Source: an uncultured Clostridia bacterium
GTDB lineage: Bacteria > Bacillota > Clostridia > Oscillospirales > Oscillospiraceae
Length of the DNA stretch: 64,000 nucleotides
NCBI GenBank assembly: GCA_945948535.1
Contig: CAMFBN010000006.1
Location: 22,347 to 86,346, forward strand
Direction of reading: 5' to 3'
The notes under the pieces were generated by a model. That model was not told the DNA's origin. It did not search any database and worked only from the letters and a program-made list of their open reading frames with translations. The position numbers and the translations under genes were made by a program. Positions 6,705 to 24,778 of this stretch are shown piece by piece (position 1 is the stretch's first letter; each line of letters begins with the position of its first letter).

Positions 6705-7118
6705 TTACATATCCATTGCAGGGTTCATATAGTATACATTTTTCTGATTCAGTTTCTCCCGCAATAATTGCGCGGCTTCTCCGAACCTTTGGAAATGGAC
6801 GATTTCCCGTTCACGCAGGAACTTAATCACATCGTTGACATCGGGATCGTCACTAAGCCTGAGAATATTGTCATAGGTAACCCGCGCTTTCTGCTCTGCC
6901 GCGAGGTCCTCCACCAGATCTGCCATGGGGTCTCCCTTGACGGCCATGCTGGCAGCGTTCCAGGGGCTGCCGGATGCGGCGGTGGGATATACACCCACGG
7001 TGTGGTCGACGAAATATGGTGCGAATCCGGCATCTTTGATCTGCCCATCATTGAGATTTCTTGTCAGCTGATGCACAATCGCGCCAATCATCTCCAGGTG
7101 ACCCAGTTCCTCTGTACC
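6705..7118 (-). CDS. cotJC: 3' part of split cotJC (Mn-catalase-type spore coat protein)
   Basis: This frame encodes the C-terminal two thirds of CotJC, beginning at the metal-binding segment 'EELGHLEMIGAIVHQL' and including 'DLVEDLAAEQKAR' and 'REREIVHFQRF', whose Glu and His residues are manganese-catalase ligands. It has no start codon of its own except an internal ATG at 7091. The frame runs on through the recombination core at 7114-7118 into element DNA. The missing N-terminal half lies at 24664-24915. Joined at the shared GGTAC, the two give 597 nt, an in-frame 198-aa CotJC of normal length. Unless excised, this gene is broken. Confidence 0.9.
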   Translation of the reverse strand, partial: GTEELGHLEMIGAIVHQLTRNLNDGQIKDAGFAPYFVDHTVGVYPTAASGSPWNAASMAVKGDPMADLVEDLAAEQKARVTYDNILRLSDDPDVNDVIKFLREREIVHFQRFGEAAQLLREKLNQKNVYYMNPAMDM

Positions 7119-7141
7119 CGGAGAAGCATCGGAAATGTTCC
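7114..7141. other. Right attachment site of the cotJC element
   Basis: The core GTACC (7114-7118) is followed by the element arm GAAGCATCGGAAATGTTCC (7123-7141). The same core and a 17/19-matching inverted arm lie at 24708-24732. Left of the core is cotJC; right of it is element DNA. Confidence 0.8.
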
Positions 7142-7173
7142 AAAAAACAGTGGACAGGCAATGTCTGTCAGTT

Positions 7174-9084
7174 TTAGCAGCACTCCATAAGGTAGGACTG
7201 TCCGGCTTTTACGGTCAGTTCGATGCTGGAGCCGTCCACCGGGCGGTACTCCAAGGGCGTTCCGAAGATATCCGTGTGTTCCTTAGGCGTGGTTGCGCCT
7301 ACCGCGCCAAGAGGCAGACGGATTTTCACATCCTGCTGTTCCGTTGAGATTACGCCGACGAGCACATCATCCTCCCAGAACCGGGCGATGGCTACCACAT
7401 TGCCTTCGGCGTACAGGAATTTCATACCGCCCAGCCGCAGCGCTTTGTGATCTGCCTTCAGGTGGGTCATGGTGTGAATCAGGCGGTAAGCGTCACAGGA
7501 GGGAATGTCCCGGCTCCAAGGCATGGGATAGCGGCAACCCTCGTTGGTGCCCAGCGTTCCGTCAATTTCCGCTTCGTCTCCGTAGTAGACAGAAGCCGCG
7601 CCGGTGAGCAGGAACTGGAAAATCACCGCCCCCCGGTAGCTTTCCTGAGAAATTATGGGATTGTTGTGCAGGCGGCTGGCATCGTGGCTGTCAAACAGGT
7701 TAAACTGGTTCTCCCACATCACGTAGGGCAGCTTCGCCAGATGCTCCAGAACGCGGTTTTTCACATCCTGCGCCGTCATCCGGTAGGGCACGCTGCGAAG
7801 AACGGCGTTTCTCGCCATGAACAGATCCGGCTCTCCCAAAAACTGCCGGATGACTCTGCCGCAGCCGTAGTAATTCATCGGCGCGTCCCATTCATTTCCC
7901 TGCAAATACTGAGCACAGTCGCCCCAGTCCTCCGCCAGAATATAGGCCTGTGGGTTAACAGCGCGAATGCTTTCACGAATCTCGGGCCAGAGAGTGTGGG
8001 CCAGCTGAAGCTCGTCCTTTCTGCCGAAGGTATCCGCCACGTCAAATCGCCAGCCGTCAATGCTGTAGGGTGGCTTCAGCCATTTTTTCAGAACAGAATC
8101 CTCCCCGCGGTAGATCACATCCCGCAGAGCCTCAGAGGTATAGTTGAGGGTGGGCAGGGTATCGACACCCAGCCATTTGTGATAGGAATTGTCGGGTGCA
8201 AAGAAATAGTATTCCCGCTCCGGGCTGTCCGGGTTGTTGTAGGCTCCGACGGACTTATCGAAGAAGGCCCCGTCCCGATTAAACCACTTGTGAGCAATGC
8301 CGGTGTGGTTGATGGAGATATCCAGAATCAGCTTCATGCTATTCTCATGAAGCGCCTGGCTCAGCTCCGCCAGCGCCTGATCACCGCCCAGATGGGGGTC
8401 CACATGGAAGTAATCCAGGCAATCGTACTTATGTACAGAGGGCGCCACAAAAATGGGGTTTAAGTACAGGGCAGTCACGCCCAGCTCTTTCAGATAGGGA
8501 ATCTTCTGCCGGATGCCCTGCAGATCGCCGCCGAAGAAATCCATGCAGTAGCCCTTCTCATAGGGCAGGGGCGTATCTTCCCAGTGCTCCATGTGAATGG
8601 CCGGGTGACCATCCTGAGAGTATTCACCGGTGCGAACATCGTTTGAGGAGTCACCGTTGCAGAACCGTTCCGGGAATATCTGGTAAAACACCGCGTCCTT
8701 GACCCACTCCGGCTGGACATAATCCGCCAGCAGCACGAAATCGTAGGTGTGATCCGGCACATAGGTGGTGATTTCCTTCTGCGTATAGAAGTAAATCACA
8801 TTCTCACAGACCAGATAGAATTGGTACTGCATCCGATTTTCCGTCATCTGCAGAGGGGCTTCGTAGTAGACAAGCCCCTTTTCTTCCTTCCAACGGGTCA
8901 TCGGGATCAACTGCTCCACACCGTTGGGAATGGTACGCAGAAAAACACAGTTCACCGGAGCATCCCGGTAAAAACGCAGCCTGATGGTAACGGTTTCAAA
9001 CAGCTTTGGGCAAGGGCTGCTGACGAAGGCAGGAGTGCCGTCGCTGTAGACGCTTTCCAGCCAGAGGTCATTGCAATTTTCCAT
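7174..9084 (-). CDS. Glycoside hydrolase family 13 (neopullulanase/cyclomaltodextrinase-like)
   Basis: A ~636-aa GH13 enzyme with an N-terminal beta-rich domain, then the catalytic barrel. Conserved regions are visible: 'DISINHTG' (region I), 'GWRFDVAD' with the nucleophile Asp (II), 'YILAEDWG' with the acid/base Glu (III) and 'FNLFDSHDASR' (IV). No signal peptide is evident, so it should degrade maltodextrins or cyclodextrins in the cytoplasm. ATG 9084 follows GGAAG; the ATG at 9120 has no ribosome site. It is the first cargo gene inside the right end of the element, and no terminator is seen between its stop and the attachment site. Confidence 0.88.
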   Translation of the reverse strand: MENCNDLWLESVYSDGTPAFVSSPCPKLFETVTIRLRFYRDAPVNCVFLRTIPNGVEQLIPMTRWKEEKGLVYYEAPLQMTENRMQYQFYLVCENVIYFYTQKEITTYVPDHTYDFVLLADYVQPEWVKDAVFYQIFPERFCNGDSSNDVRTGEYSQDGHPAIHMEHWEDTPLPYEKGYCMDFFGGDLQGIRQKIPYLKELGVTALYLNPIFVAPSVHKYDCLDYFHVDPHLGGDQALAELSQALHENSMKLILDISINHTGIAHKWFNRDGAFFDKSVGAYNNPDSPEREYYFFAPDNSYHKWLGVDTLPTLNYTSEALRDVIYRGEDSVLKKWLKPPYSIDGWRFDVADTFGRKDELQLAHTLWPEIRESIRAVNPQAYILAEDWGDCAQYLQGNEWDAPMNYYGCGRVIRQFLGEPDLFMARNAVLRSVPYRMTAQDVKNRVLEHLAKLPYVMWENQFNLFDSHDASRLHNNPIISQESYRGAVIFQFLLTGAASVYYGDEAEIDGTLGTNEGCRYPMPWSRDIPSCDAYRLIHTMTHLKADHKALRLGGMKFLYAEGNVVAIARFWEDDVLVGVISTEQQDVKIRLPLGAVGATTPKEHTDIFGTPLEYRPVDGSSIELTVKAGQSYLMECC

Positions 9085-9272
9085 AGACAATTCTTCCTTT
9101 CCTTTGTAGCACCCTGACATTGTATCAAAATGACAGAAAAAGTAAAGGGCATAAGCAAAGCTGTTTCCGGATTAAGACTTTTTGTTGAGATAGCTTGGTC
9201 AAAGCATATCCGAATCAGTTATGGCTTCTTGCGGAACTCATAAGAGAAGGCGAGAACCGACCCGCTGGTGTA

Positions 9273-10532
9273 TTATTTGCGTTTGGCAGATGTCTGCCTT
9301 TGGCGCTGTGGCAGCGTTACAGTGATTTGCAGTTTGCCCTTTGTGGGCTGGGACGCATGAATCTGACCGTTGTGGGCGGCAGTAATGGCACTGGCGATGG
9401 AAAGGCCGATGCCATGCCCACCGGTTTGAGAGTTTCGGGAAGGGTCAGCCCGGTAGAAACGCTCAAACAGCCTGTTCAGATCACCTTCCGGCAGGGGAAC
9501 TGCGGAGTCATTGCAGACTGTCAGCCTGAGCTGCTTACCGTGCTTTGACAGAGACAGCATAATAGCAGTCTCTTCCGGGGAATACTTCAGAGCATTGTCC
9601 AGCAGGATACCGACCAGCTTGGAAATCGCCTTTTCGTCTGCTTCCATGGAAAGCATGGGTTCGACGGCAATTTGCAAATCTTTCTTCTGTGTCTGCGCAA
9701 GGGTATGGAAGGACTGCGCCGTTTCCGCAATTACATCGGCAACCGGGATTTCCAGCAGCTCCAGCGGCGTTCCGCCTTCCTCCATCCGGGCAAGGCTCAC
9801 CAGATCATTGGTCAGGCCTGTTAGCCTGTGAACATTGCTTTGGATATCCGCCAGCCACTCGTTTTCTCCCAACTCCATTGCCAGAACGTCTGCATCCGCC
9901 TGAATAATGGTCAAAGGCGTTTTGATTTCATGTCCCGCATCCGTGATAAACTGCTTCTGCTTTCCGTAGCTTTCCGCAAAGGGACGGACGATCCTGCCGG
10001 AAAAGTAGACCACAATGCCAAAAATCAGCAGCAGGCCAGCGGCTGAAAGGAGGATACTGGTCAGCAGAAACCGCTGAAAGGCGCTGATTTCCCGTCCGCA
10101 GTCCAGAAATCGAATCCGAACGGTATCCCCATCATATTGCTTGCGGTAGCGGTAGATACTCTGAAAGCCGGTATCTGTGTCCTTTGCAAAGACTTTGGCA
10201 GCCAGGGAGGAGGCTTCGTCATCATCGATCATGGCCCCAACCGGAAGCTGGGTGTCAAGCACATTGCCGTCCGATGACAGAACCACAGAAAAGAAACGGG
10301 CATAGCTGTGCGAGTCCGGCGAAAATTGGCTGAACAAACCATTTGCCCCTGTTCCAATGGTGCCTTTGCTTTTCACCATGCGTCCCGGATTATCGACAGT
10401 TATTATTCGGTCCGCCTCTGACACGATGCCCCGGTAACTGGCAAGGTTGATTCCACCTACCAGTACCACCAGCACGACAAGCAGGGTAGACATAGACAGA
10501 ATGATAAAGCGGGCGCGTAACTTCTGGATCAT
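9273..10532 (-). CDS. Sensor histidine kinase
   Basis: A 419-aa membrane kinase: transmembrane segments at about 9-30 and 155-177 flank an outer sensor region, followed by the H-box 'DAGHEIKTPL' (His201), an N-box 'LLDNALKYS' and a G-box 'GGHGIGLSIA'. The start overlaps the response regulator stop (ATGA). It presumably phosphorylates the upstream-encoded regulator. The divergent VTC-DUF4956-lipoprotein cluster starts next to the regulator gene and may be its target; this is inference. Confidence 0.9.
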   Translation of the reverse strand: MIQKLRARFIILSMSTLLVVLVVLVGGINLASYRGIVSEADRIITVDNPGRMVKSKGTIGTGANGLFSQFSPDSHSYARFFSVVLSSDGNVLDTQLPVGAMIDDDEASSLAAKVFAKDTDTGFQSIYRYRKQYDGDTVRIRFLDCGREISAFQRFLLTSILLSAAGLLLIFGIVVYFSGRIVRPFAESYGKQKQFITDAGHEIKTPLTIIQADADVLAMELGENEWLADIQSNVHRLTGLTNDLVSLARMEEGGTPLELLEIPVADVIAETAQSFHTLAQTQKKDLQIAVEPMLSMEADEKAISKLVGILLDNALKYSPEETAIMLSLSKHGKQLRLTVCNDSAVPLPEGDLNRLFERFYRADPSRNSQTGGHGIGLSIASAITAAHNGQIHASQPTKGKLQITVTLPQRQRQTSAKRK

Positions 10533-11200
10533 GTATGTTCCTCCAAAAGATACCCGGCGTTTCGCACCGCTTTAATGGCAACATTGGCGTTTAACGCATT
10601 CAGCTTTTTGCGAAGATAGGAAATATAGACCCAGACCACGCTGTTTTCCACATTGGAATCCAAACCCCAAATCTTTTCCATAAAACGGTCAGGGGAGATC
10701 AGCTGCCGTGGGTTTGCCATCAGCAGCTCCATCATCTGATATTCCTTGTTGGCCAAACGGAAGCTGCCGGTGGGAGAGCTTAATTCGAAATTTCTGCGGT
10801 TCAGGGTGAGGTTTCCGAAGGTCAGGGAGGCATCCACCTCCAGATGTCCTCTTGTCATGGCACGAATCCGGGCCAGCAGCTCCTGTGTATCAAAGGGTTT
10901 TGTCAGATAGTCGTTGGCCCCGGAGTCCAGACCCAGCACTTTGTCATCGACTTCTGCTTTCGCGGTCAGCATCAGTACAGGAACCTGCTTTCCCTTGGCA
11001 CGGATAGCCTTTAAAACGGAGATTCCGTCCAGCTTCGGCATCATGATATCCAGAATTACACCGTCATAGTCACCGTTTTCCAGATACTCCATCGCAGTCT
11101 GTCCATCGTATACGGCATCCACACTGTAACAGTTTTTCTCCAAGATATGTGTGATGGCTCTGGACAGGGAACGTTCATCCTCAGCAAACAATAATTTCAC
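10529..11200 (-). CDS. OmpR-family response regulator
   Basis: A 223-aa protein with a receiver domain (phospho-acceptor Asp51 in 'VILDIMMPK', Lys in 'LTAKAEVDD') and a C-terminal winged-helix DNA-binding domain ('VENSVVWVYISYLRKKL'). A GTG start at 11200 is preceded by AGGAGG. It forms an operon with the overlapping histidine kinase. Confidence 0.92.
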   Translation of the reverse strand: MKLLFAEDERSLSRAITHILEKNCYSVDAVYDGQTAMEYLENGDYDGVILDIMMPKLDGISVLKAIRAKGKQVPVLMLTAKAEVDDKVLGLDSGANDYLTKPFDTQELLARIRAMTRGHLEVDASLTFGNLTLNRRNFELSSPTGSFRLANKEYQMMELLMANPRQLISPDRFMEKIWGLDSNVENSVVWVYISYLRKKLNALNANVAIKAVRNAGYLLEEHT

Positions 11201-11356
11201 GGTCCATTCCTCCTTTTCGGCTATTGTACACCATTCACATTAACTATAGCTTAAATTTGGAGGCAAGTAAAGCAGGCCAATTTTGAAATTTTTGTGTCTT
11301 TAAGGCTCAGTTATGGTTGGCGTGTTATGCTTTCCCCAGAAAAGGAGGAATCCCAT

Positions 11357-12076
11357 ATGGCCTATCAATCGGTGTTCAGTCGGTATGAGCTGAAATATTT
11401 ACTGACCCCAGCCCAGAAAAAGCAGGTTCTTCTGGCAATGCAGCCTTATATGAAGCTGGACGACTACGGGCGAACTACCATACGAAATATCTATTATGAT
11501 ACCCCCAGCTACCGTCTCGTGCGGCAGTCGCTGGAGCGTCCCGCTTACAAGGAGAAGCTGCGCATTCGCAGCTATGCCCAGGCTGATCCCTTCAGCCCGG
11601 TGTATGTGGAGTTGAAAAAGAAATACGACGGCATAGTATACAAACGCCGTATCGCCCTGCCGGAGAGGGAAGCCATGGCATGGATTTCGGGAAATTGCCC
11701 CTGCCTGCGGGAGGAACAGATCGTGAGAGAAATCGACTATTTCAAATGTTTTTACACCCCGCTGGAACCAAAGGTGTTCCTTTCTTACGAACGGGAGGCC
11801 TATTACGCGCTGGATGGTTCCGATTTCCGGGTGACCTTCGATGAATCCATCCTCAGCCGTCAGAGAAATCTGTCCCTGTGCGACGGAATATGGGGCACGC
11901 CTCTGCTGAGTGCAGGACAAACCCTCATGGAAATCAAATGTGCAGGCGGAATTCCGCTGTGGATGACGGCAGTGCTTTCTGAAGAAGGTATTTTCAAAGC
12001 TTCCTATTCCAAATACGGTACAGCATATCAGAAAATGATTTATCCATATTTACAGGGAGGACGCAAATATGCTTGA
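11357..12076 (+). CDS. VTC-domain polyphosphate polymerase-like protein
   Basis: A 239-aa protein with the VTC catalytic tunnel-fold pattern: 'RYELKYLLT', 'IRNIYYDTPSYRLV', 'KEKLRIRSY', 'VYVELKKKYDG', 'KVFLSYEREAY' and a final 'MEIKC'. Related enzymes make polyphosphate from ATP. The gene has a strong AGGAGG site and overlaps the next gene by 8 nt. It opens a three-gene cluster with a DUF4956 membrane protein and a surface lipoprotein. Confidence 0.85.
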   Translation: MAYQSVFSRYELKYLLTPAQKKQVLLAMQPYMKLDDYGRTTIRNIYYDTPSYRLVRQSLERPAYKEKLRIRSYAQADPFSPVYVELKKKYDGIVYKRRIALPEREAMAWISGNCPCLREEQIVREIDYFKCFYTPLEPKVFLSYEREAYYALDGSDFRVTFDESILSRQRNLSLCDGIWGTPLLSAGQTLMEIKCAGGIPLWMTAVLSEEGIFKASYSKYGTAYQKMIYPYLQGGRKYA

Positions 12077-12764
12077 CTTTTTCTTTCGGGGAGTCTTTAA
12101 TACAGATATTTCCGGTGTGATTTCCTTCGGAGATTTCCTTTTGTGCATGGGCTGCTCGTTGCTGATTGGCGGGATTCTGGCCTTTAGCTGCCGCTATCAG
12201 GGACGGTATACCAAGAGCTTTCTGGTCACGCTCATGCTGCTGCCTGCTGTGGTCTGCACCATTATCATGATGGTAAGCGGCAGTGTGGGCGCAGGTGTGG
12301 CGGTAGCGGGAGCCTTCAGTCTGGTGCGCTTTCGTTCGGCACCGGGGACAGGCCGTGAAATTACCATGCTGTTTCTTGCCATGGGTGCGGGATTGATTGC
12401 GGGTATGGGGTATCTGGCATTTGCATTGCTGTTTGCTCTGATCATGTCGGTCATGAATGTGATATACAATCGTCTGGACTTTGGCGAAAAGAAAAATAGC
12501 CAGCGGTATCGGACACTGTCCATCATGATCCCGGAGAGCCTTGATTACGGCGGTGTCTTTGACGAGGTGCTTCGCCATTACACCACGGATTACACGCTGA
12601 CCCGGGTAAAAACCACCAATATGGGAAGCCTTTTCCGCCTGACCTACGACCTGACCCTGCGGGAAGACGTCAGCGAAAAGGAACTGATTGACCAGCTGCG
12701 CTGCCGGAACGGGAACCTGGAAATCATGCTGTCCTGTCAGGAGAGCGCCCCGGCGGAGCTGTAA
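12069..12764 (+). CDS. DUF4956 membrane protein
   Basis: A 231-aa protein with about four transmembrane segments in the first 130 residues, including the family's 'GAFSLVRFRSAPGTGRE', followed by a soluble alpha/beta C-terminal domain. Function is unknown. In Clostridia this family is commonly a neighbour of VTC polymerases, so it may help move or sense polyphosphate; this is inference from gene order. Confidence 0.82.
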   Translation: MLDFFFRGVFNTDISGVISFGDFLLCMGCSLLIGGILAFSCRYQGRYTKSFLVTLMLLPAVVCTIIMMVSGSVGAGVAVAGAFSLVRFRSAPGTGREITMLFLAMGAGLIAGMGYLAFALLFALIMSVMNVIYNRLDFGEKKNSQRYRTLSIMIPESLDYGGVFDEVLRHYTTDYTLTRVKTTNMGSLFRLTYDLTLREDVSEKELIDQLRCRNGNLEIMLSCQESAPAEL

Positions 12765-12776
12765 GGAGGAAGAGCT

Positions 12777-14633
12777 GTGAAGAATAGAGCAATGATCAGT
12801 TTTGTGCTGTGCGCCGGTATGATGCTGACAGGGTGTGTCTCCGGCAGCAGTGCAACTGTGGCAACTGTTACCGCTGCGGGAACAGCGCCCACGGAGGCAA
12901 CCATTGCGGCGGAAAAAACCGACATTTTCAGCGACCGGGATATGGACACATCCTATTCCAAAACGGACAGTATTGCCGTTGTACTGACCGGTGACGCCGT
13001 CTCCTGTAATAGCGGCAATGTGGATATTTCCGGTACGACAGTGACCATCGAAAAGGAAGGCACTTATCTTCTCAGCGGAACACTGGACGATGGTGTAATC
13101 CTTGTAGATGCGGACAAAGCTGATAAAATTCATCTGGTTTTGAATGGCGTATCTATCCACAGCGAAGCGAGCGCTCCAATTTTTGTCCGTCAGGCGGACA
13201 AAGTGTTTGTAACGCTGGCGGCAGGAACCCAGAACAGCCTGACAAACGGCGGCAGCTTCACGCCGGATGGGGATACCAATGTGGACGCGGTGATTTTCTC
13301 CAAGGAGGACCTGACTCTGAACGGAACCGGAACGCTGACCATTACCAGTCCCGGCGGGCACGGCGTTGTCTCCAAGGATTCCCTGAAAATAACCGGGGGC
13401 ACCTACGCCATTGACGCGGAGGCCCACGGACTGTGCGGCAAGGATGCGGTGAGCATTGCGGATGGCACCTTTGATATCATCGCCGGGAAGGACGGCATTC
13501 ACGCTGAAAACAGCGAGGACGCAGAGCTGGGCAGAGTCTATCTGGAAAACGGCGCCTATCGCATCAACGCTGAAGGAGACGGCATCAGCGCTTCCGGGAG
13601 CTGTCGGATTGTGGACGGAGACTATGCCATCACAACTGGCGGCGGCAGCGAGAACGCCCAAAAGCCTGCCTCCAATCCGGGCTTTGGCAGAGGACAGAAG
13701 GGCGGAGGTACCCCCGCTGGCAAACCGCAGTTTGATTCTCAGGACTTCCCGGAACGGGGAGCGGACGGAAAGGGCGGAATCAAGGGAATGGAACGAATAG
13801 ATCCGCCCCAGGAGCCTGCGGGGGGACAGGAGCCCGCAGCTACCACGGCGGAAGCCGATACCGTCAGCACCAAGGGCATCAAGGCAAAAAGCCTGACCAT
13901 TGAGGGCGGTACCTTCACCATCGATTCTGCCGATGACGGTCTCCATACCGATGGAAATCTGACCCTTCGAGGCGGAACACTGGAAATTGCCTCCGGCGAC
14001 GACGGCATCCACGCTGATGATACTGTGACCATTGCTTCCGGCGCCATCCACATTACGGAAAGCTATGAGGGAATCGAGGGTCAGCACGTTGTCATTCAGG
14101 GCGGCGAGATCACGCTGACGGCCACCGACGACGGCCTGAACGCCGCAGGCGGTATGGATGGCAGTGGCTTTGGCAAACGCGGCGATACCTTCGCCAAGTC
14201 CGGCGAGACCCCCAGCATTGTGATTTCCGGCGGCAGCGTCGATGTCACAGCCTTCGGCGACGGCATTGACGCCAACGGTACACTGGAGATCACCGGCGGT
14301 ACTGTGACCGTCAGTGGCCCCACCTATGGAGATACCTCTGTTCTGGACTACGACATTTCCGGAACAATCACCGGCGGCGCCTTCATTGGTACAGGCGCGT
14401 CCTCAATGGCACAGAACTTCTCCGTCAGCACGCAGGGGGTAATCTGCGTGAATGTGGGCGCACAGAACGCAGGCACGAACATCACCTTGACGGACCATAA
14501 TGGAACGGTTGTCCTGTCCCACACGCCGGCACTGGACTATGAAATTGTGATTCTCAGTGCTCCTTCGATTCAGTCGGGCGAAAGCTATACACTGAACGTT
14601 GGCGGTTCCACGCAGGTATCCACCGCGAAATAA
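12777..14633 (+). CDS. Lipoprotein with carbohydrate-binding (Cthe_2159-like) beta-helix repeats
   Basis: A 618-aa exported protein with a lipobox-like 'GMMLTGC' near residue 20. The mature part is a long run of repeats such as 'GTLTITSPGGHGVVSKDSL', 'DGIHAENSED' and 'GDDGIHADDTVTI', the pattern of parallel beta-helix polysaccharide-binding proteins (Cthe_2159/DUF4353). A low-complexity Gly/Pro/Lys linker lies at about 295-350. The GTG start has AGGAGG upstream. It is probably a surface protein that binds acidic polysaccharide. Confidence 0.83.
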   Translation: MKNRAMISFVLCAGMMLTGCVSGSSATVATVTAAGTAPTEATIAAEKTDIFSDRDMDTSYSKTDSIAVVLTGDAVSCNSGNVDISGTTVTIEKEGTYLLSGTLDDGVILVDADKADKIHLVLNGVSIHSEASAPIFVRQADKVFVTLAAGTQNSLTNGGSFTPDGDTNVDAVIFSKEDLTLNGTGTLTITSPGGHGVVSKDSLKITGGTYAIDAEAHGLCGKDAVSIADGTFDIIAGKDGIHAENSEDAELGRVYLENGAYRINAEGDGISASGSCRIVDGDYAITTGGGSENAQKPASNPGFGRGQKGGGTPAGKPQFDSQDFPERGADGKGGIKGMERIDPPQEPAGGQEPAATTAEADTVSTKGIKAKSLTIEGGTFTIDSADDGLHTDGNLTLRGGTLEIASGDDGIHADDTVTIASGAIHITESYEGIEGQHVVIQGGEITLTATDDGLNAAGGMDGSGFGKRGDTFAKSGETPSIVISGGSVDVTAFGDGIDANGTLEITGGTVTVSGPTYGDTSVLDYDISGTITGGAFIGTGASSMAQNFSVSTQGVICVNVGAQNAGTNITLTDHNGTVVLSHTPALDYEIVILSAPSIQSGESYTLNVGGSTQVSTAK

Positions 14634-14642
14634 ACGCATAGG

Positions 14643-14670
14643 CCGGGACTCCCACCTCAGGGAGTCCTGG
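14643..14670. terminator. Hairpin between convergent genes
   Basis: CCGGGACTCCC pairs with GGGAGTCCTGG with one wobble. The T-tail is weak. Confidence 0.5.
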
Positions 14671-14686
14671 CATTCTAATGGATGAT

Positions 14687-16351: not shown

Positions 16352-16386
16352 GCTTTGCGTTATGAACACATAGGTTCCCTCGGGAA

Positions 16387-17077: not shown

Positions 17078-17134
17078 TGATAGCTCCTTGCAATATATGA
17101 TATAAATACTGCGTTTTTGTCTCAGTTTGCCTTA

Positions 17135-17163
17135 TTGCGGCAGTCAGTGAAATAAGATACAAT
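17135..17163 (+). promoter_or_regulatory. Promoter of the DegV gene
   Basis: TTGCGG, 17 nt, TACAAT. The -10 box lies inside the palindrome at 17156-17169, so a repressor bound there would block it. Confidence 0.5.
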
Positions 17164-17169
17164 TGTATC
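17156..17169. promoter_or_regulatory. Palindromic operator, probably for the TetR protein
   Basis: GATACAATTGTATC is a perfect 14-bp palindrome in the divergent tetR-degV gap. It contains a TACAAT -10 box on each strand. Confidence 0.5.
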
Positions 17170-17284
17170 ATTTCATTATATCTATTTGAAAGTCCCGTTG
17201 TCAACAGCTGACCATATGAATGATTACAACTTGCCGGATGGAAGGGACTGCGCCGATTATGTGGATAAACAGAAAGGAAACGCT

Positions 17285-18151
17285 ATGAAAATTGCGATTA
17301 CGACAGACAGCAACAGCGGCATCACTGCCCAGGAGGCGGAGAAGCTGGGGGTTTTCTTGCTTCCCATGCCGGTGATAATCGATGAGGAAACCTATCTGGA
17401 GGGTTTGAATATTCACACAGAGCAGCTGTTTGCGGCGATGGAACTGGAGCGCGGTGTTTCTTCATCCCAACCGGCACCGGGCAGCATTCTCCAATTGTGG
17501 AATTCTATTTTTGAGCAGGGCTATGACGCCATCGTATATATTCCCATGACCAGCGGACTCAGCGGAAGCTGTCAGAATGCCGCTATGCTCGCGGAAGACT
17601 TCGAAGGCAGAGTATATGTGGTGGACAATCACAGAATCTCCGTGACCCAGCGGGGGTCGGTGCTGGAAGCGAAGCATATGGCGGACGCGGGATATCCGCC
17701 GGAAGAAATCAAAGCGTATCTGGAGGCATCTGCGTTTCAGGCCAGCATCTATCTGACGGTTGCGGATTTAAAGTATCTTCAGCGGGGTGGACGGCTCAGT
17801 TCCTCGGCGGCTTTGCTGGGAACGCTTCTGAATATCAAGCCGATTCTTTCCATACAGGGTTACCAAATTGACGTATTTTCAAAGGTCCGCGGATTGAAGG
17901 CATGTGAGAAGAAAATGATCGAAGCGGTTCAAAACGATATTTCGACACGCTTTGCGGATGTTCCCATGGAAAAGCTCCGAATTGAGGCAGGCGGAACCCA
18001 ACGGAATCAAGAGGACAGGGACCACTGGCAGTCGACAGTTCAGGCGGCGTTCCCGGGTGCGGCAGTGGAGTATGTGACGCTTCCGTGCAGTATTGCCAGC
18101 CATGTTGGACCGGATTGTATGGCGATGGCTGTTTTTGCCAGTGAATATTGA
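17285..18151 (+). CDS. DegV family fatty-acid-binding protein
   Basis: A 288-aa protein with the DegV start 'MKIAITTDSNSGIT', 'GLNIHTEQLF', 'SSQPAPGSIL', 'MTSGLSGSCQNA' (fatty-acid head-group loop) and 'LKYLQRGGRLSSSAALLGTLLNIKP' split over residues about 160-185. FakB-type members hand fatty acids to the FakA kinase for phospholipid synthesis. An AAAGGAAA site precedes the ATG. It is probably controlled by the divergent TetR regulator. Confidence 0.9.
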   Translation: MKIAITTDSNSGITAQEAEKLGVFLLPMPVIIDEETYLEGLNIHTEQLFAAMELERGVSSSQPAPGSILQLWNSIFEQGYDAIVYIPMTSGLSGSCQNAAMLAEDFEGRVYVVDNHRISVTQRGSVLEAKHMADAGYPPEEIKAYLEASAFQASIYLTVADLKYLQRGGRLSSSAALLGTLLNIKPILSIQGYQIDVFSKVRGLKACEKKMIEAVQNDISTRFADVPMEKLRIEAGGTQRNQEDRDHWQSTVQAAFPGAAVEYVTLPCSIASHVGPDCMAMAVFASEY

Positions 18152-18255
18152 CAGACGGCGCCTGCGGAGAGGTGATCGTCCTTGATGGAAATTTCCGCTA
18201 ATGCGGGCGCATAACATAGAAACTATTGGTTGCATAACGGATATTTGCAGTATTT

Positions 18256-19575
18256 TTAGAGGGAATTTTGAATATAAAAAACGAGACCCGCCGCGTTGGC
18301 CAGGAACCAGCCGATAGGAATGGAGCACCAAATCGCGACCACGCCCAGCGGCGTATGGGGCGCCAGTGCGTAAGACAGGGCTACGCGGGTGCCCAGAGAA
18401 ATGATGGTGAGAGTCAGGGAAATGTGGGGCCTGCGGATGCCGCGGAAGTAACCGTACCAAAGGAACAGCACGCCGATGCCCACATACATGGCACCCTCAA
18501 TCCGTAGGTATCGGGCGCCTTCCGCAATGATTTCTGTCTCACTGGCATCAACAAAAAATCCCATCAGATTTCCGGCGAAGAGGAAGATCAGAACGGAGAT
18601 GGCAAGACAGAAGCAGGCAGAAGCAAGAAAGGAAATTCTCGTTCCCTTACGGATGCGGTCTTCCTTTTTGGCACCGTAGTTCTGTGAAACGAACAGGGAG
18701 TAGGCGTTGCCGAATTCCTGTGCGGGCATATAGACGATGGTGTCAATTTTGACGGCGGCAGCGAAAGCGGCCATAATGGCGGCGCCAAAGCTATTGACCA
18801 GGCCCTGAATCATGAGAATGCCAAAATTCATGACAGACTGCTGGATGCCCGTTGCGACATCGTTGACAATGATTTCCCGAAGCCTGTGAAAACTCCGTCC
18901 TGGGGACTTGTCTCCACGCAGGATTGGGAGCCTGGCAAGTGAATAGGCGGCGATGCCGATACCGGAGGCAGCTTGCGCGATTACCGTCGCCCAGGCAGCG
19001 CCGCCAACGCCCATGTTCAGGCCCACAACGAACCCAATATCCAACACAATGTTCAGTCCGGCGGATACGGCCAGAAAAATCAGTGGCACCATGGAGTTGC
19101 CCATAGCCCGAAGCAGATACGAGAAGAAATTGTAAAGAAATACGAAGAGAATACCCACAAACACTGCGGAAACATATTCCCGGGTCATCTCCATCAGTTC
19201 TGTCGGCGTTTGCAGCAGATTCAGAATGGACTGCATTCCCGGGTAGATAACGAGGTAGATTAGCCCGGATACAACAAGAATAAACCAAAACGACAGCCGG
19301 ATATCCTCCCGGAGTCTTCCATCCTCACCGGCGCCGTAGTCGGCGGAAAAGAAGGCACCGCTTCCCATGCACAGGCCGATGATAATAGAGGTAATGAAGA
19401 TCATCAGCGTGTAGGCGGAGCCCACGGAGGCCAGCGCATCCGCGCCGATGCACTTGCCGACGATCAGCGTGTCCGCCAGATTATATACCTGCTGCAAAAG
19501 ATTTCCCGCAATCATAGGCAAGGAAAAACGAATGAGCTTCTGAAAAATAGAACCTTCTGTTAAATTGATTTCCAT
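18256..19575 (-). CDS. MATE family efflux transporter
   Basis: A ~439-aa, 12-segment membrane protein beginning 'MEINLTEGSIFQKLIRFS', with the family's 'NLADTLIVGKCIGADALASVG' region split over residues 32-52 and a second-half repeat ('QEFGNAYSLFVSQNYGAKK'). Multidrug and toxic-compound extrusion proteins export cationic drugs with Na+ or H+. ATG 19575 follows GGAG; an alternative TTG at 19590 is possible. The gene stands alone inside the element. Confidence 0.9.
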   Translation of the reverse strand: MEINLTEGSIFQKLIRFSLPMIAGNLLQQVYNLADTLIVGKCIGADALASVGSAYTLMIFITSIIIGLCMGSGAFFSADYGAGEDGRLREDIRLSFWFILVVSGLIYLVIYPGMQSILNLLQTPTELMEMTREYVSAVFVGILFVFLYNFFSYLLRAMGNSMVPLIFLAVSAGLNIVLDIGFVVGLNMGVGGAAWATVIAQAASGIGIAAYSLARLPILRGDKSPGRSFHRLREIIVNDVATGIQQSVMNFGILMIQGLVNSFGAAIMAAFAAAVKIDTIVYMPAQEFGNAYSLFVSQNYGAKKEDRIRKGTRISFLASACFCLAISVLIFLFAGNLMGFFVDASETEIIAEGARYLRIEGAMYVGIGVLFLWYGYFRGIRRPHISLTLTIISLGTRVALSYALAPHTPLGVVAIWCSIPIGWFLANAAGLVFYIQNSL

Positions 19576-19792
19576 CTTTATAAACTCCAATCGTAGCTTC
19601 CGTATCTTTTCTTGATTTCAGCGTTGATTCAAAAAGCTATTTTACTGTAAAAGCGGCTAAATTGCAAGACACACCGGATGGAATGGTCACTAAAAACGGA
19701 TACCGCAAATACGGCTATGCGTATACGCGCCAGTGCGCGCCAGCATGAATTCCGTTCTGCGCCATATAGCAGGGCAGGGGAGGAATGTCTGA

Positions 19793-19915
19793 TGAAGTCG
19801 AAAGCAGATACATCAGTGGGAGAGGCGATTCCAGATCTGGATAAACCGGAATACATCATTTCCCGGCTCACCCGGAAAAATCTGTCCTCTGTTCCCTCGA
19901 AAAGAGGAATCTGAT
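19793..19915 (+). CDS. Short unrecognised ORF
   Basis: A 40-codon ORF starting 'MKSKADTSVGEAIPDLDKP' with GGGGAGGA upstream. I do not recognise it. It could be the remnant 5' end of a longer gene such as the truncated oxidase gene that now begins near 20950. Apart from this ORF and the hairpin at 19965, the gap 19576-20048 shows nothing else. Confidence 0.25.
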
Positions 19916-19964
19916 TAGCCTGTCCCGGCGGGACAAATGTTAAAATAAAAAACCAAAAGAGGGG

Positions 19965-19993
19965 AAAGCACCAGACGTTGAATCTGGTGCTTT
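19965..19993 (-). terminator. Terminator of the DUF2935 gene
   Basis: AAAGCACCAGA pairs with TCTGGTGCTTT around a 7-nt loop. On the minus strand it is followed by a long T-rich tail. The stem matches that of the hairpin at 23152-23178. Confidence 0.7.
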
Positions 19994-20048
19994 CCGTTTC
20001 GTAAGAAACCTAAAAAGCCAATTGAAAGGTTTCCAATATCCCTGCCGC

Positions 20049-20939
20049 TCAGTGCTTCAAGATCCGAATATAATGGTTTGCTTCGCGCAGCACATGATCT
20101 GCCAGCAAGGGAAGAATGATGCTGCGAATTTTGCACTGCTGTATTCCTTGCACGCCTGCTATCTTGAAATCCCGGAAGCGAATGGTTTCTGAAAGAGATT
20201 CTGCCATCTGCGTTTTTTGAGCGGCATTTTTGCTGTTTTCCAGAAGTTTGCCATACTCTTTTGCGAAATTATCCGCAGTGCAGAAGAGCTCTGCTTCGCA
20301 GGGGTCCAGCAGCCCCCGGATAAACTGGGCGTGCTCCATCATGATCTGGTTCCAGAAGCATTCATTTTCCTTCATGGAGCACTCGGACAGGTCACCGTCC
20401 CGCTCCAGCATTTCCACGAACTTTCGGTACAGCTTCGCCTCCCGCAGAATGTGTTCGATCAGGAGCGGATAATTCAGAGTGAACATTTCGCATCTTAATG
20501 CCCGTTTGAGAATGGTTTCCTTGAAATCGATCAGCCCAGCCAGAAGCTTTAGCGCAGTGCGGTTCAGTCTGTGCACTTTTTCCTGCATTTGGGTCAGATT
20601 ACTTTGGCAGTCTCCGGGCCGTAAACACAGGGAATGATTTGTAATTTCCCTGGCAATGGGAATTCCGGTAAAGCACTCTGTCTGCTTTTCTGTCCAAGCC
20701 GTAAACTCCGTCACTACCTCTCCCGACTCGATCACATCCCTACCGACGACACCGCCTGCCAAAGTAACGGTGTCCCGCAGCAGTGCCTCGAAGCTCTTTT
20801 GGTAAAATGCTGCCCTTTCTGAGAAGGAAGGATCGGCAGAGGTGAATCCTGCCCGCAGGAAAAACGCATGCTCTTTCATGATTCGCCCGAAAAACAGGTG
20901 CAGCTCCAATGATTTTACAACATACCGGTTCGTATTCAT
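20049..20939 (-). CDS. DUF2935 protein (two ferritin-like helical repeats)
   Basis: A 296-aa all-helical protein with two related halves, each with an E-H pair in a helix: 'LELHLFFGRIMKEHAFFL' near the start and 'CFWNQIMMEHAQFI' near residue 190. This matches DUF2935, found in Bacillus and Clostridia, of unknown role. The Glu/His pattern suggests a metal or redox function. GGAGG lies 4 nt before ATG 20939. The gene is divergent from a multicopper-oxidase-like gene whose 5' end is missing right at this start. Confidence 0.8.
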   Translation of the reverse strand: MNTNRYVVKSLELHLFFGRIMKEHAFFLRAGFTSADPSFSERAAFYQKSFEALLRDTVTLAGGVVGRDVIESGEVVTEFTAWTEKQTECFTGIPIAREITNHSLCLRPGDCQSNLTQMQEKVHRLNRTALKLLAGLIDFKETILKRALRCEMFTLNYPLLIEHILREAKLYRKFVEMLERDGDLSECSMKENECFWNQIMMEHAQFIRGLLDPCEAELFCTADNFAKEYGKLLENSKNAAQKTQMAESLSETIRFRDFKIAGVQGIQQCKIRSIILPLLADHVLREANHYIRILKH

Positions 20940-20948
20940 AGTACCTCC

Positions 20949-22889
20949 AGACCAAAGCCAAATTTCGAAACCCTGATCGAGCGGTTCTTTGCCAATGAGG
21001 AGCTGCACACCGTCTTTTTCCATGACCATCTGTTTGCCAACATGCACCAGCAGCATGGCCTGTTCGGCGCGCTGATCGTCGAACCCGCCGGGGCGGAATT
21101 TCTGGATCCCCACACCCTGTGCCCCATCCGTTGTGGTACGCAGGCAGTGATCCGCCGGAAGGACGGCACCGCATTCCGGGAGTTCTCTCTGTTCCTCCAT
21201 GATTTTGCCCTGCTGTTTGACGGAAAGGGAAATCCTTTGAACCCACCGGAGCAGCCCGGTTCCCACGATGATCCCGGCGTCATGGGAATCAACTACCGCT
21301 GCGAGCCTATGCCAGAGCGGCTGAAATACAAAGACGACCCGGCACACATCTTCTCGTCTCTGACCTACTGGGACCCTGCTACACCTATGCTGGAAACCTA
21401 TCCTGGCGAGGAGCTGGTGATCCGGCTGCTGGACGGGGCCCATGAGGAGCAGCACGCCTTTAACATTGTGGGCATGTCCTGGGAAAAGAAAATCACCAAC
21501 CCGAATTCCCCGGTGGTAGCAGCACAGACCATCGGCATATCGGAGGTCTTCAATATTCGCGTTGAAGAGCCCTACGCCGCCGGAGATTACCTCTACTACA
21601 GCGGCAGCGTGGACGATGTATGGCTTGGGCTTTGGGGAATTATCCGCGCTCATGCCGAGCCACTGGAATGCCTGCCGCCCCTGTGCGGAAAGCGGAAGAA
21701 ACAGGTATGCCTGACGCCGCCGCCCGGGGCTTGCATCCACAAATTTGAGATTGCCGCGATTCAACAGGATCTGGAGTATAACCGCTACGGCGACCACGAC
21801 CCGGACGGACTGCTGTTTGTTCCGCTGGAGGATGTGGAAAACATCCGCCGGGGCAGGAAACGGCCCGTTCCGCTGATTCTCCGGGCCAATGCCGGAGACT
21901 GGATCGAAGTGACACTTCACAATCTGTTTGAAAAACAGGTGCCCTATTTTGACTACCCCTCCGTGCCGCTGGATCTGCGCCACAGGCCCTCCAACCGGGT
22001 GTCGCTGAATCCCCAGTTTCTTCAATACGACCCAATAAATGACTCGGGTCTGAATGTGGGCTATAACGATGCAGAGCAGACCGTTGCGCCCGGGGAATGC
22101 AGAAAATACCTGTGGCATGCCGACAGGGGCCTGCTCCGTTCCTTCGGCGACCTGAGAAACCACAAGTATCACGGTCTGTTCGGCGCAATCATCATCGAGC
22201 CGCCGGGAGCCAAATACTACCGCACATTCAGTCAGGTGGCGCAAAACCATGAGGTGCAATCCATTATTACGGCGCCGGGTGCGGCAACCTTCCGGGAGTT
22301 TGTTCTCTTTGCCCACAACGGAATCCGAATGTTGGTTAAAGCGGGGAATCTCATAAAAACCACGGAGGCAGGGGAACCCCACGGTGCCCACGGCGAGGTG
22401 GATCATGAGGACACGGGGGAGAAAGGCTTCAATTACCGCTCCGAACGGTTCTTTAACCGCTTTCAGAGGGTGCCTCTGGCTTCCAAACTTTTTGATTCCA
22501 AGGTGCACGGGGAACCGGCTACCCCGGTGCTCAAGGCCTATACCAGGGAGCGGGTGATCATCCGCTACCTGATGCCGGGAGATAAGCCCAGAAACACAGT
22601 CTTCCTGATCCACGGTCATGTATGGCGGGAGCAGCCCGGGAATCCACTGTCCAATGTGGAGCCGGTGAAGGGGGCCATCAGCGTGGGCAATGTCTACAAT
22701 CTGGAACTGCTGGGGGGCGCTTCCGACTGTCCCGGCGACTATCTCTACCGTTCCGGCGCCCTGCGCTGGGATGTGGAGTCCGGAATGTGGGGCATTCTCA
22801 GAATTCAAATGCGTACGGCGTTCTACACGCTGGCATCCTGCTACCGCAATGTGGGGCAGTGGTGGGAGAAGGTATGGAGGAAAGACTGA
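20949..22889 (+). pseudogene. Multicopper-oxidase-like (MnxG-type) protein, 5'-truncated
   Basis: The frame is open from 20913, but homology-like sequence begins near 20950 ('FETLIERFF') and no ATG occurs until 21042, inside a conserved 'HDHLFANMHQQHGLFGALI' copper-ligand block. It holds two cupredoxin pairs; the second shows 'HKYHGLFGAIIIEP' and 'FLIHGHVW'. The usual final ligand motif H-C-H-x3-H-x4-M is not present: the matching places read 'DYLYYSGSVDDV' and 'DYLYRSGALRWDV'. It could still be translated from 21042 (615 aa), but lacks the N-terminus. The closest type is the large Mn-oxidising family of Bacillus spores. Confidence 0.65.
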
Positions 22890-22918: not shown

Positions 22919-22948
22919 GCATGTATCTTTTTCGAACCCCATATAGTA
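22919..22948 (+). promoter_or_regulatory. Possible SigE/SigK-type promoter upstream of the recombinase
   Basis: GCATGTA, 14 nt, CATATAGTA. The -10 box fits the SigK form CATAnnnTA exactly and resembles the SigE box; the -35 is a partial SigE match. Such a promoter would place recombinase expression in the sporulating mother cell. Confidence 0.35.
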
Positions 22949-22992
22949 GGGGGTGGAGGTGCTGCCTGCTGTATCATAAGGAATATGTATAC

Positions 22993-23166
22993 GTGGGAGG
23001 ATCCATTCCAGAGCTGAACGCACAGGAACACAGGGATTTTTTGATTCTTCTGGAAAAAGCGGTTCTCTATTCTCTGGAGAATCGAAATCTGATCAGCCGT
23101 AATCAAAGGGACAGGTGTCTCATTGGGATCGACAACCTGCACGCAAAGGATAAGCACCAGACTTAG
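22993..23166 (+). CDS. Small unrecognised ORF directly upstream of the recombinase
   Basis: A 57-codon frame from GTG 22993 (or 41 codons from TTG 23041) containing 'EHRDFLILLEKAVLYSL' and 'RNQRDRCLIGIDNL', a helix-rich, charged sequence. The codon pattern looks real, but no strong ribosome site is seen. Its place between a sporulation-type promoter and the recombinase makes a recombination accessory factor possible; this is not recognisable from the sequence. No other gene is seen in 22890-23230. Confidence 0.35.
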   Translation: MGGSIPELNAQEHRDFLILLEKAVLYSLENRNLISRNQRDRCLIGIDNLHAKDKHQT

Positions 23167-23178
23167 GGTCTGGTGCTT
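23152..23178 (+). terminator. Hairpin between the small ORF and the recombinase
   Basis: AAGCACCAGAC pairs with GTCTGGTGCTT around TTAGG. There is no clear T-run after it, so it may be a weak terminator or attenuator. Confidence 0.45.
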
Positions 23179-23230
23179 TCCATATTGGCGTGCCTGCATG
23201 GAGGCAAAAAAGCAGAAGGGAGCATTTGCC

Positions 23231-24778
23231 GTGTCTGTCAATCGATATGAACGTTTGAATGAGGAACACCGGCACCAGCAGGTGAAAAAGCGCGTTGCCG
23301 CATACTGCCGGGTTTCCACCGACCATGAGGATCAGGCCAATTCCTTTGAAAGCCAGCAGCGGTATTTTCGCCAATACATTCAGTATCACCCGGACTGGGA
23401 GCTGTATGACATTTTTGCGGATGAAGGTTTGTCCGGAACCACAACGAAAAAGCGCAGAGAGTTTAACCGAATGATTGCCTGCGCAGAAAACGGTGAAATC
23501 GACCTGATTATTACGAAGGAGATCTCCCGTTTTGCCAGAAACACATTGGATAGCATTTCCTATACCCGGAAACTGAAACGACACGGAGTGGGTGTGATTT
23601 TTATGAGCGACAACATCAACACCCTGGACGGGGATGCAGAATTGCGCCTTGCCATCATGTCCTCCATCGCCCAGGAGGAGAGCAGAAAAACCTCTGAACG
23701 TGTCAAGTGGGGGCAGAAGCGGCAGATGGAGCAAGGGGTTGTCTTTGGAAGGAACATGCTTGGGTATGACGTGAAAGATGGAAAGATGACAATTAACGAA
23801 GATGGCGCGGAAGTGGTGCGCCGGATCTTTCATAAATTCGTTCATGAGGGAAAAGGCACCCACGTGATTTGCCGGGAACTGCGGGAAGAAGGGATTGTGC
23901 CGATGCGGGGGAAAGAGTGGTGCAATACGGTGATTCTTCGGCTCCTTCGGAATGAAAAATACTGCGGTGATCTGGTTCAAAAGAAAACCTATACGCCGGA
24001 TTACCTGTCCCACGAAAAAAAGTACAACAAAGGTCAGGAAGAATTCGTAATCATCAAAGATCACCATGCGCCGATTATTTCCCGGGAACTGTTTGATGAA
24101 GCAAATCGAATTCTGGACGAACGGTCCGATTCTCAGGCCGGGAAATCAAAGCACTCCAACCGCTACCCGTTTTCCGGAAAAATCAAGTGTGGATGCTGTG
24201 GTGCAAGCTATGTTTCCCGGTATAAGCCCCGGAAGGATGGAAGCAGGTATAAATCATGGAGGTGCTATGAAGCAGTGAGGAATGGTTCCCCCCATATTGA
24301 CCCATCGGGAAACCACGTTGGGTGTTCCGGCACCGGTATCCGCAATGAAGACGCCGTCCATATCATGTATTTGGTAACCCGGAGCCTGAAATATGACAGA
24401 AAAAAGGTAGCAAACAATCTTCTCAGCGTCATTCAGCCGGTTATCCATCAGGATATGTCCGGCGTGGGCATAGAAAGCAGCCAATACCAGATCCAGCGTG
24501 AAAAGCAGCAGGAACGGATCCGGGCAATTACTGATGCGATTGATGAGATCATTTCAGGTGCGGCAGATGAGGATGTGTTTTACAAGCACATCCTGAATAA
24601 AATGGTAGTGATTGACTCGGAACATATCGAAGTATACCTTAACCTGCTTCCTTTTACATGGACCTACGCAGTATCCAGAGTGTTGCCCACCGAGGCCAAA
24701 GCACAACGGAGCATTTCTGATGCTTCAGTACCAATGTCGGTCAGCAGCCCCTTCAATTCGTCGAAGGGCATGGAGTAG
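23231..24778 (+). CDS. Large serine recombinase of the cotJC element
   Basis: A ~515-aa site-specific recombinase. The resolvase domain has 'AAYCRVSTDHEDQ' (catalytic Ser29), 'FADEGLSGT' and 'ITKEISRFARN'. It continues with a recombinase domain ('GYDVKDGKMTINEDGAEVV'), a zinc-ribbon 'CGCCGASY...RCYEA' and a coiled coil at about 435-465. I prefer GTG 23231, with AGAAGGGAG upstream; ATG 23198 is an alternative. The last 17 codons lie beyond the recombination core, inside cotJC on the opposite strand, so excision changes the C-terminus. It is the predicted enzyme that excises the element. Confidence 0.92.
   Translation: MSVNRYERLNEEHRHQQVKKRVAAYCRVSTDHEDQANSFESQQRYFRQYIQYHPDWELYDIFADEGLSGTTTKKRREFNRMIACAENGEIDLIITKEISRFARNTLDSISYTRKLKRHGVGVIFMSDNINTLDGDAELRLAIMSSIAQEESRKTSERVKWGQKRQMEQGVVFGRNMLGYDVKDGKMTINEDGAEVVRRIFHKFVHEGKGTHVICRELREEGIVPMRGKEWCNTVILRLLRNEKYCGDLVQKKTYTPDYLSHEKKYNKGQEEFVIIKDHHAPIISRELFDEANRILDERSDSQAGKSKHSNRYPFSGKIKCGCCGASYVSRYKPRKDGSRYKSWRCYEAVRNGSPHIDPSGNHVGCSGTGIRNEDAVHIMYLVTRSLKYDRKKVANNLLSVIQPVIHQDMSGVGIESSQYQIQREKQQERIRAITDAIDEIISGAADEDVFYKHILNKMVVIDSEHIEVYLNLLPFTWTYAVSRVLPTEAKAQRSISDASVPMSVSSPFNSSKGME

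What the first reader, a model, noticed from the sequence alone, without database searches (positions are those of the whole stretch)
7114..24732. A 17.6-kb recombinase-borne element splits the coat gene cotJC (skin-like)
The N-terminal 63 residues of CotJC (24915-24728, minus) and the rest (7118-6705, minus) are 17.6 kb apart. They join at a shared GGTAC into 597 nt, an in-frame 198-aa protein. The break falls just before the metal-binding EELGHLEM, so neither half can bind metal. The element has inverted arms and a large serine recombinase at one end. This matches the logic of skin in sigK: excision in the doomed mother cell restores a gene needed only there, while the forespore keeps the element. 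It is not a random insertion, because the ORF phase is exactly preserved.
Basis: partly seen in the sequence, partly recalled or inferred. Interest (0 to 1): 0.95.

Follow-up and report, generated by a model that had tools for sequence, protein, structure and literature searches.

The report
Spore-coat gene split by excisable element
In this bacterium the spore-coat gene cotJC is cut in two by a 17.6-kb DNA element that carries its own recombinase, the same gene is cut at up to five places in many related spore-formers, and the element is likely cut out in the mother cell during sporulation so that the gene would work only there.

Summary
CotJC residues 1-63 and 62-198 lie 17.6 kb apart and share GTACC (24728-24732, 7114-7118); joined they give an in-frame 198-aa CotJC. 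An uninterrupted protein with one difference exists in public data. A serine recombinase abuts one end and the circle joint is a strong dyad.

It is not isolated. Of 101 genus genomes, 35 have cotJC cut inside a contig (checked one by one) and 31 only intact; RadA next door is whole in 59 of the 62 in which it was found. Cuts fall at five sites with largely site-specific recombinase clades, and some genes are in three pieces. Of 80 recombinase relatives, 66 have cotJC at their 3' end, and the elements move between species. The same genome has sigK in three pieces, two beside recombinases.

In relatives, a conserved small ORF with a sigma-E-like promoter precedes a recombinase with a sigma-A-like one, the layout of C. 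difficile skin; the window's own copies are weak or lacking. Mother-cell excision is strongly suggested, not shown.

The parts
24728..24915 (-). cotJC 5' piece, residues 1-63 including the core
   Evidence: Mn_catalase profile 1-65; in-frame join
6705..7118 (-). cotJC 3' piece, residues 62-198
   Evidence: Mn_catalase profile 101-198; in-frame join
24728..24732 (+). core GTACC at the cotJC 5' junction
7114..7118 (+). core GTACC at the cotJC 3' junction
24708..24726 (+). attP arm GGAGCATTTCTGATGCTTC (element side)
   Evidence: dyad; similar arms in elements L049, L052, L056, L059, L085, L103, L114
7123..7141 (+). attP arm GAAGCATCGGAAATGTTCC (element side)
   Evidence: dyad
23231..24778 (+). 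large serine recombinase; start at GTG 23231 predicted from relatives, ORF open from 23123; its end is antisense to cotJC
   Evidence: relatives' starts
22969..23166 (+). small ORF (65 aa if it starts at CTG 22969, 57 aa from GTG 22993), conserved beside this recombinase clade; candidate recombination directionality factor (predicted)
   Evidence: no Pfam match for the 57-aa form, no PHROGs match for the 65-aa form
22940..22947 (+). CATATAGT, predicted sigma-E-like -10 before the small ORF; the -35 here is weak
7174..22889 (.). cargo: alpha-amylase, histidine kinase and response regulator, VTC, DUF4956, Cthe_2159, cytidylate-kinase-like, CarD, TetR, DegV, MATE, DUF2935, and a 615-aa ORF without Pfam or PHROGs match; no phage structural or lysis family
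24918..25364 (-). single ORF with CotJA and CotJB domains, upstream in the cotJ operon

Best explanation
A 17.6-kb element with a large serine recombinase sits inside the spore-coat gene cotJC, and it is likely excised as a circle in the sporulating mother cell to rebuild an intact cotJC, the way skin works in sigK. Shown from sequence: precise ends with a shared core, a palindromic circle joint, a full-length joined gene, an uninterrupted version in public data, and relatives of the recombinase that sit at this codon of cotJC in many Clostridia and move between species. Inferred: the recombinase alone would integrate the element, and excision would need a small partner, for which the conserved ORF just upstream is the candidate; in relatives that ORF has a sigma-E-like promoter while the recombinase has a sigma-A-like one, so excision would be confined to the mother cell. 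The forespore would keep the element, so the cargo is inherited. In this genome sigK is itself in three pieces, so the mother cell would need at least three excisions to finish its programme.
For: Ends, core, joined ORF; attP dyad with p<=0.05 against shuffles in 38 of 54 junctions counted (13 of 67 rows dropped). Uninterrupted 198-aa homologue with one difference. Genus: 35 of 101 genomes cut inside a contig, 31 intact only, 8 undecided at contig ends, 5 with only a paralogue, 22 with none; all 35 show a sharp in-register loss of CotJC sequence at the cut. RadA control: 59 whole, 3 partial. 13 of 14 split genes tested rejoin to exactly 198 aa. Of the 80 recombinase relatives kept (best 80 of 148), 66 have cotJC residues 1 to 60-90 antisense at the 3' end. 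120 of 141 recombinase ORFs on cut loci lie within 400 nt of a cut, 115 of them by the 3' end; site labels need 6 changes on the recombinase tree against a mean of 36.2 for shuffled labels. sigK in three pieces in the same genome, two with a recombinase abutting; Spo0A and SpoIVA present. Small ORF beside 69 of 120 recombinases; CATA[CT] before it in 10 of 14 divergent regions against a shuffled mean of 1.7, maximum 6; TCGACA N15-18 TA.A.T before 36 of 74 site-A recombinases against a shuffled mean of 0.1, maximum 2 (loci are related). C. difficile skin has this layout: recombinase from sigma A, 72-aa RDF from sigma E and SpoIIID (passages of PMC5025042); SPbeta sprA/sprB likewise (passages of PMC4191935).
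Against: No excision, circle or expression was observed. The window's own recombinase lacks the sigma-A-like match, and its small ORF has a weak -35 and starts with CTG or GTG. dN/dS of split cotJC (median 0.057) equals that of intact (0.059), but insertions can be recent, so this does not prove use after insertion. In G069 the recombinase next to the cut is in fragments. CotJC may be dispensable: B. subtilis mutants are said to show no apparent defect (PMC12122855, passage), and three of 28 genomes carry a second full-length copy. The in-register offset test favours offset 0 in 29 of 54 junctions, but not in the window itself. Control promoters matched the sigma-E-like pattern poorly: cotJ 2 of 49, spoIVA 6 of 23.
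Confidence: 0.78

Rival explanations
1. Safe-harbour insertion: cotJC is a landing site tolerated because CotJC is dispensable, and the element is simply a mobile cargo element with no programmed excision; carriers make spores without CotJC.
For: Elements move between species on short time scales: recombinase dS 0.06-0.3 with cotJC dS about 1-1.5 in a number of pairs, G060/G078 edges 92-99% identical with saturated cotJC. Cargo is ordinary genes. Second cotJC copies in three of 28 genomes. Weak phenotype of cotJ mutants (PMC12122855, passage).
Against: Split pieces are free of in-frame stops in 17 of 17 and dN/dS is as low as in intact genes although 35 of 66 resolvable species are split; sigK, needed for sporulation in C. 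difficile (PMC5025042, passages), is split in the same way in this genome; sigma-E-like promoter before the small ORF in relatives.
Confidence: 0.15
2. Reversible switch not tied to the mother cell: the element excises by growth phase or stress in part of the population, like yin in yabG, and cotJC restoration is a side effect.
For: Many recombinases in relatives have sigma-A-like promoters; yin shows growth-phase-dependent excision (abstract of PMC10747680).
Against: Conserved sigma-E-like promoter at the small ORF in divergent relatives; several recombinase clades converge on one coat gene.
Confidence: 0.06
3. Assembly or binning artefact, or an ordinary pseudogene.
For: The window's genome is a draft of 112 contigs with 4.4% contamination.
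Against: Both halves and the whole element are on one contig; single-contig genomes G167 and G332 show the same split; Blautia sp. An249 has three pieces in order on one contig; dyads and cores at the ends; uninterrupted near-identical homologue.
Confidence: 0.01

Closest known systems
skin in sigK (Bacillus subtilis, Clostridioides difficile)
   Same: Serine recombinase at one end, short core, mother-cell gene split and precisely restorable; in C. difficile recombinase from sigma A and a 72-aa RDF from sigma E plus SpoIIID (PMC5025042, passages)
   Different: Target is cotJC; excision not shown here; small ORF has no demonstrated RDF activity
gin in gerE (Bacillus cereus ATCC10987)
   Same: Non-phage element in a small mother-cell gene, recombinase GirC plus a small RDF GirX, inverted attG (PMC5595907, first sixth of the text and passages)
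   Different: gin has three recombinases and one target site; here this element has one recombinase, and elements of the kind use five sites in one gene
SPbeta in spsM (Bacillus subtilis)
   Same: Recombinase made in growth, 58-aa RDF SprB from a mother-cell promoter (PMC4191935, passages)
   Different: SPbeta is an active phage; no phage structural gene recognised here
yin in yabG (Clostridium botulinum V73)
   Same: Intervening element in a gene for coat assembly (PMC10747680, abstract and section 3.1)
   Different: yin is a prophage reported from one isolate; cotJC elements are widespread
phi027 near cotG (C. difficile R20291)
   Same: Prophage attachment site beside a CotJC-like Mn-catalase gene (PMC11222575 and PMC12122855, passages)
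   Different: As described there the gene lies downstream of attR and is not said to be split

Membership tests
Sporulation gene-intervening elements (skin, SPbeta, gin) | Splits a sporulation gene whose halves rejoin in frame at a shared core | tested here: met
Sporulation gene-intervening elements (skin, SPbeta, gin) | Carries a site-specific recombinase adjacent to an attachment site | tested here: met
Sporulation gene-intervening elements (skin, SPbeta, gin) | attP with inverted arms about the core | tested here: met
Sporulation gene-intervening elements (skin, SPbeta, gin) | Encodes a small RDF expressed in the mother cell | tested here: inconclusive
   conserved small ORF and sigma-E-like promoter in relatives; weak -35 in the window
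Sporulation gene-intervening elements (skin, SPbeta, gin) | Excision during sporulation restores the gene | not testable with these tools
   needs cells or reads
Prophage | Phage structural, packaging or lysis genes inside the element | tested here: not met
   14 interior ORFs besides the recombinase scanned with Pfam and PHROGs: none of these categories; 6 of the 14 match PHROGs families, all of unknown function except one named kinase
skin (sigK element) | Inserted in sigK | tested here: not met
   this element is in cotJC; sigK is separately split in the same genome

The most novel reading that the evidence does not exclude
cotJC, together with sigK, is a shared landing pad on which about six recombinase clades have converged at five codons in Clostridia, giving genes in two or three pieces, so that the mother cell must carry out several programmed DNA excisions, in effect DNA splicing of a bacterial gene, to finish its spores, while the forespore germ line keeps and spreads the cargo.
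Probability: 0.6. Interest if true: 0.93.

Novelty: new variant of a known kind. Interest (0 to 1): 0.85.

Why it matters
Programmed DNA excision in sporulation is known, in the papers seen here, from a handful of genes. Here one coat gene is split in 35 of 66 resolvable species of a genus and in many other Clostridia, at five sites, by several recombinase clades, sometimes twice at once. It would make terminal mother-cell genes a general haven for mobile cargo, could explain why whole cotJC or sigK genes seem to be missing from some genomes, and gives a directly testable case of bacterial gene assembly by DNA splicing in isolates such as Blautia sp. An249.

Tried and rejected
That cut sites are the most conserved stretches of cotJC: not supported. 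Windows at the five sites lie at the 95th (E), 74th (C), 62nd (A), 54th (B) and 27th (D) percentiles of 24-nt identity in 30 intact genes.

That dN/dS would show use after insertion: inconclusive. Split-split 0.057 (46 of 136 pairs with finite dS), intact-intact 0.059 (183 of 435), split-intact 0.062 (210 of 510), but no vertically inherited insertion pair was found among the 17 split genus genes compared.

That the cargo is a block of shared host genes: not supported by the one gene tested. The 615-aa cargo ORF occurs in 1 of 61 genus genomes, the window's own; G+C does not clearly differ. A shared RDF in 16 small elements by BLAST: one weak pair of antisense ORFs only; the small ORF came from a profile search. 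Sigma-K-like promoter before the small ORF: 0 of 54. Control promoters: cotJ operon regions matched the sigma-E-like pattern in 2 of 49 (by eye they show CATAG[AT]AT instead) and spoIVA regions in 6 of 23, so the pattern is a rough one. SpoIIID box: the conserved GTACAA does not fit the C. difficile consensus given in PMC5025042; not claimed.

Viral collection: 10 relatives, two with cotJC pieces, L179 and L180; a third, L187, matched at 40%. Rows dropped from the junction counts: E G015, G224; C G015, G167, G119, L108; A G015, G119, L086, L095; B G042, G043, G332 (uninterrupted by BLAST or assigned to the wrong site). G015 did not rejoin. L096 and one L101 recombinase sit inside clade A on the tree with other labels and may be mislabelled.

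Full report
OBSERVATION. The window holds two pieces of cotJC on the minus strand, residues 1-63 (24915-24728) and 62-198 (7118-6705), separated by 17.6 kb. They share GTACC on the plus strand at 24728-24732 and 7114-7118. Joined at that core they give 597 nt and 198 codons without an internal stop. Both match the Pfam Mn-catalase profile in complementary parts. No other CotJC was found in the draft genome (2 matches in G000, both pieces; 95.6% complete). A public protein, P0001, is uninterrupted, 198 aa long and differs from the joined one at a single residue; it lies on 18 contigs. So the empty site exists in close relatives.

ANATOMY. The element has a large serine recombinase at the cotJC 5' end (Resolvase, Recombinase and Zn-ribbon domains; PHROGs integrase). 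Joined as a circle, the two ends give an imperfect palindrome centred on the core, 17 of 24 mirror pairs, while the empty site shows 9, the level of shuffles. Similar arms (GGAACATTTC..GATGCTTC) recur in other elements with this recombinase clade, for example L049, L059, L085 and L114. The cargo is about a dozen ordinary genes; of 14 interior ORFs besides the recombinase none matches a phage structural, packaging or lysis family in Pfam or PHROGs. Its 615-aa ORF occurs in 1 of 61 genus genomes, this one. G+C does not clearly differ from the flanks.

NOT ALONE: THE GENUS. Searching 101 genomes of the genus with the joined protein, 79 match. Reading the pieces and contig lengths, I count 35 genomes with a cut at least 100 nt inside a contig, 31 with only intact genes, 8 undecided at contig ends and 5 with only a paralogue; 22 have no match. 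All 35 were then checked: each has at least one place where at least 8 of 12 residues match CotJC on one side and at most 4 of 15 on the other. One of the 35, G095, also has an intact copy. RadA, 1.3 kb away and more than twice as long, is full length in 59 genomes and partial in 3; both pieces of G015 and one of the two of G054 end at contig ends, and I could not check G051. Of 18 matches to a CotJC paralogue (35-40% identity), 16 run over 178-181 residues and two weak ones (G001, G046) cover only residues 11-79. Thirteen of 14 split genes tested rejoin to exactly 198 aa.

FIVE SITES, SEVERAL RECOMBINASE CLADES. Cuts cluster near residues 30, 50, 63, 135 and 178. In one search, 54 of 80 family genomes, chosen because their best match was not full length, show two or more complementary pieces by my reading of a truncated list. 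Single-contig genomes show it: G167 with 3.1 kb and G332 with 12.8 kb between pieces. Of 141 serine recombinase ORFs of 300 aa or more on cut loci, 120 lie within 400 nt of a cut and 115 of those point at it with their 3' end. On a tree of 119 of them, site labels change 6 times, against a mean of 36.2 and a minimum of 31 for 500 shuffles. Site 63 has two separate clades, and the site-50 and site-178 groups (2 and 5 members) are small. Some genes with two elements have two different recombinases, each at its own junction, for example G197, G316 and G162. Blautia sp. An249 has three cotJC pieces in order on one contig. Of 28 genomes searched through their loci, 27 have complementary pieces and 7 have three; three also carry a second full-length copy.

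MOBILE AND TARGET-SPECIFIC. The recombinase has 148 relatives in a collection of 84,980 species; the best 80 were kept (57-75% identity). Of these 80, 66 have cotJC residues 1 to 60-90 antisense within 400 nt of their 3' end; of the other 14, eight have cotJC pieces elsewhere on the locus and six show none there. Pairs such as L072/L076 have recombinase dS 0.06 and cotJC dS 1.21, and G060/G078 have element edges 92-99% identical with saturated cotJC. So the elements jump between species into the same codon. This also limits the selection test: dN/dS is as low in split as in intact genes (0.057 and 0.059) with no stop in 17 of 17 split genes, but recent insertion could explain that.

SIGK IN THE SAME GENOME. 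The sigma-K gene of G000 is in three pieces on contigs C43, C69 and C77, and the second and third are abutted by serine recombinases. The second junction shares AAATG at ARCVEN/EILMYF; I recall, without a call, that B. subtilis skin sits at this place. In the genus, by my reading, 19 genomes show sigK pieces ending or starting near residues 90-125 and 9 near 53-63; I did not check these for contig ends. Spo0A and SpoIVA are present. Sigma K is needed for sporulation in C. difficile (PMC5025042, passages), so if this lineage sporulates it probably restores at least one split gene.

HOW IT LIKELY WORKS. In 69 of 120 cases a related ORF of about 50-70 aa lies directly upstream of the recombinase; the window's, at 22969-23166, has no Pfam or PHROGs match. 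TCGACA N15-18 TA.A.T stands before 36 of 74 site-A recombinases, against a shuffled mean of 0.1 and a maximum of 2, but not before the window's; by eye a hairpin precedes the ribosome site in many of them. The small ORF has a conserved TATAT..GTACAA..CATA.AT block before its ribosome site: 10 of 14 divergent regions have CATA[CT], against a shuffled mean of 1.7 and a maximum of 6; the stricter form with a -35 is in 3 of 14, against 0.02. The loci (35 of 54 against 2.9) and 95 are related, so those counts are not independent. In C. difficile the skin recombinase is read from sigma A and its 72-aa RDF from sigma E and SpoIIID (PMC5025042); SPbeta uses SprA and the 58-aa SprB in the same way (PMC4191935); gin uses GirC and GirX (PMC5595907). 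I infer that the small ORF is the RDF and that sigma E triggers excision in the mother cell. The window's own promoter copy is weak, and control promoters matched the pattern poorly.

KNOWN OR NEW. Searches for cotJC with serine recombinase and sporulation (none), cotJC alone (48 papers, 40 listed, seen as titles and abstract starts), cotJ with intervening, recombinase and excision (one paper, the C. difficile skin study), and wider searches (listings only) showed me no report of an interrupted cotJC; the library lacks most subscription papers. phi027 is described as lying beside, not inside, a CotJC-like gene (passages). The kind is known; the target, the number of sites, the double insertions and the spread appear new.

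Noticed in passing
G000 C43:14361-14528, C69:6655-6912, C77:1697-2074 (outside the window): sigK of the same genome is in three pieces, the second and third each abutted by a serine recombinase; no whole sigK was among the matches.
   Followed up: partly
23123-24778 (+): The end of the recombinase ORF lies in cotJC antisense, so excision would give the recombinase a different C-terminus on the circle.
   Followed up: no
24918-25364 (-): CotJA and CotJB domains are in one 148-aa ORF.
   Followed up: no
upstream of cotJA in the genus, for example L122: By eye, cotJ promoters share TGAAC, a spacer and CATAG[AT]ATGA, often followed by an inverted repeat like GGAACGACAGTTCC.
   Followed up: partly
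L248:4845-10444 (G000 C52): Three serine recombinases in tandem, which recalls the three of gin.
   Followed up: no
20049-22889: A DUF2935 gene (-) and a 615-aa ORF (+) that by eye resembles multicopper oxidases; both could be spore-related cargo.
   Followed up: partly
L163 and L178 (G095): One genome has both an intact and a split cotJC on different contigs, either two copies or mixed bins.
   Followed up: no
L179, L180 (viral collection): Two predicted viral contigs carry cotJC pieces beside this recombinase clade.
   Followed up: no
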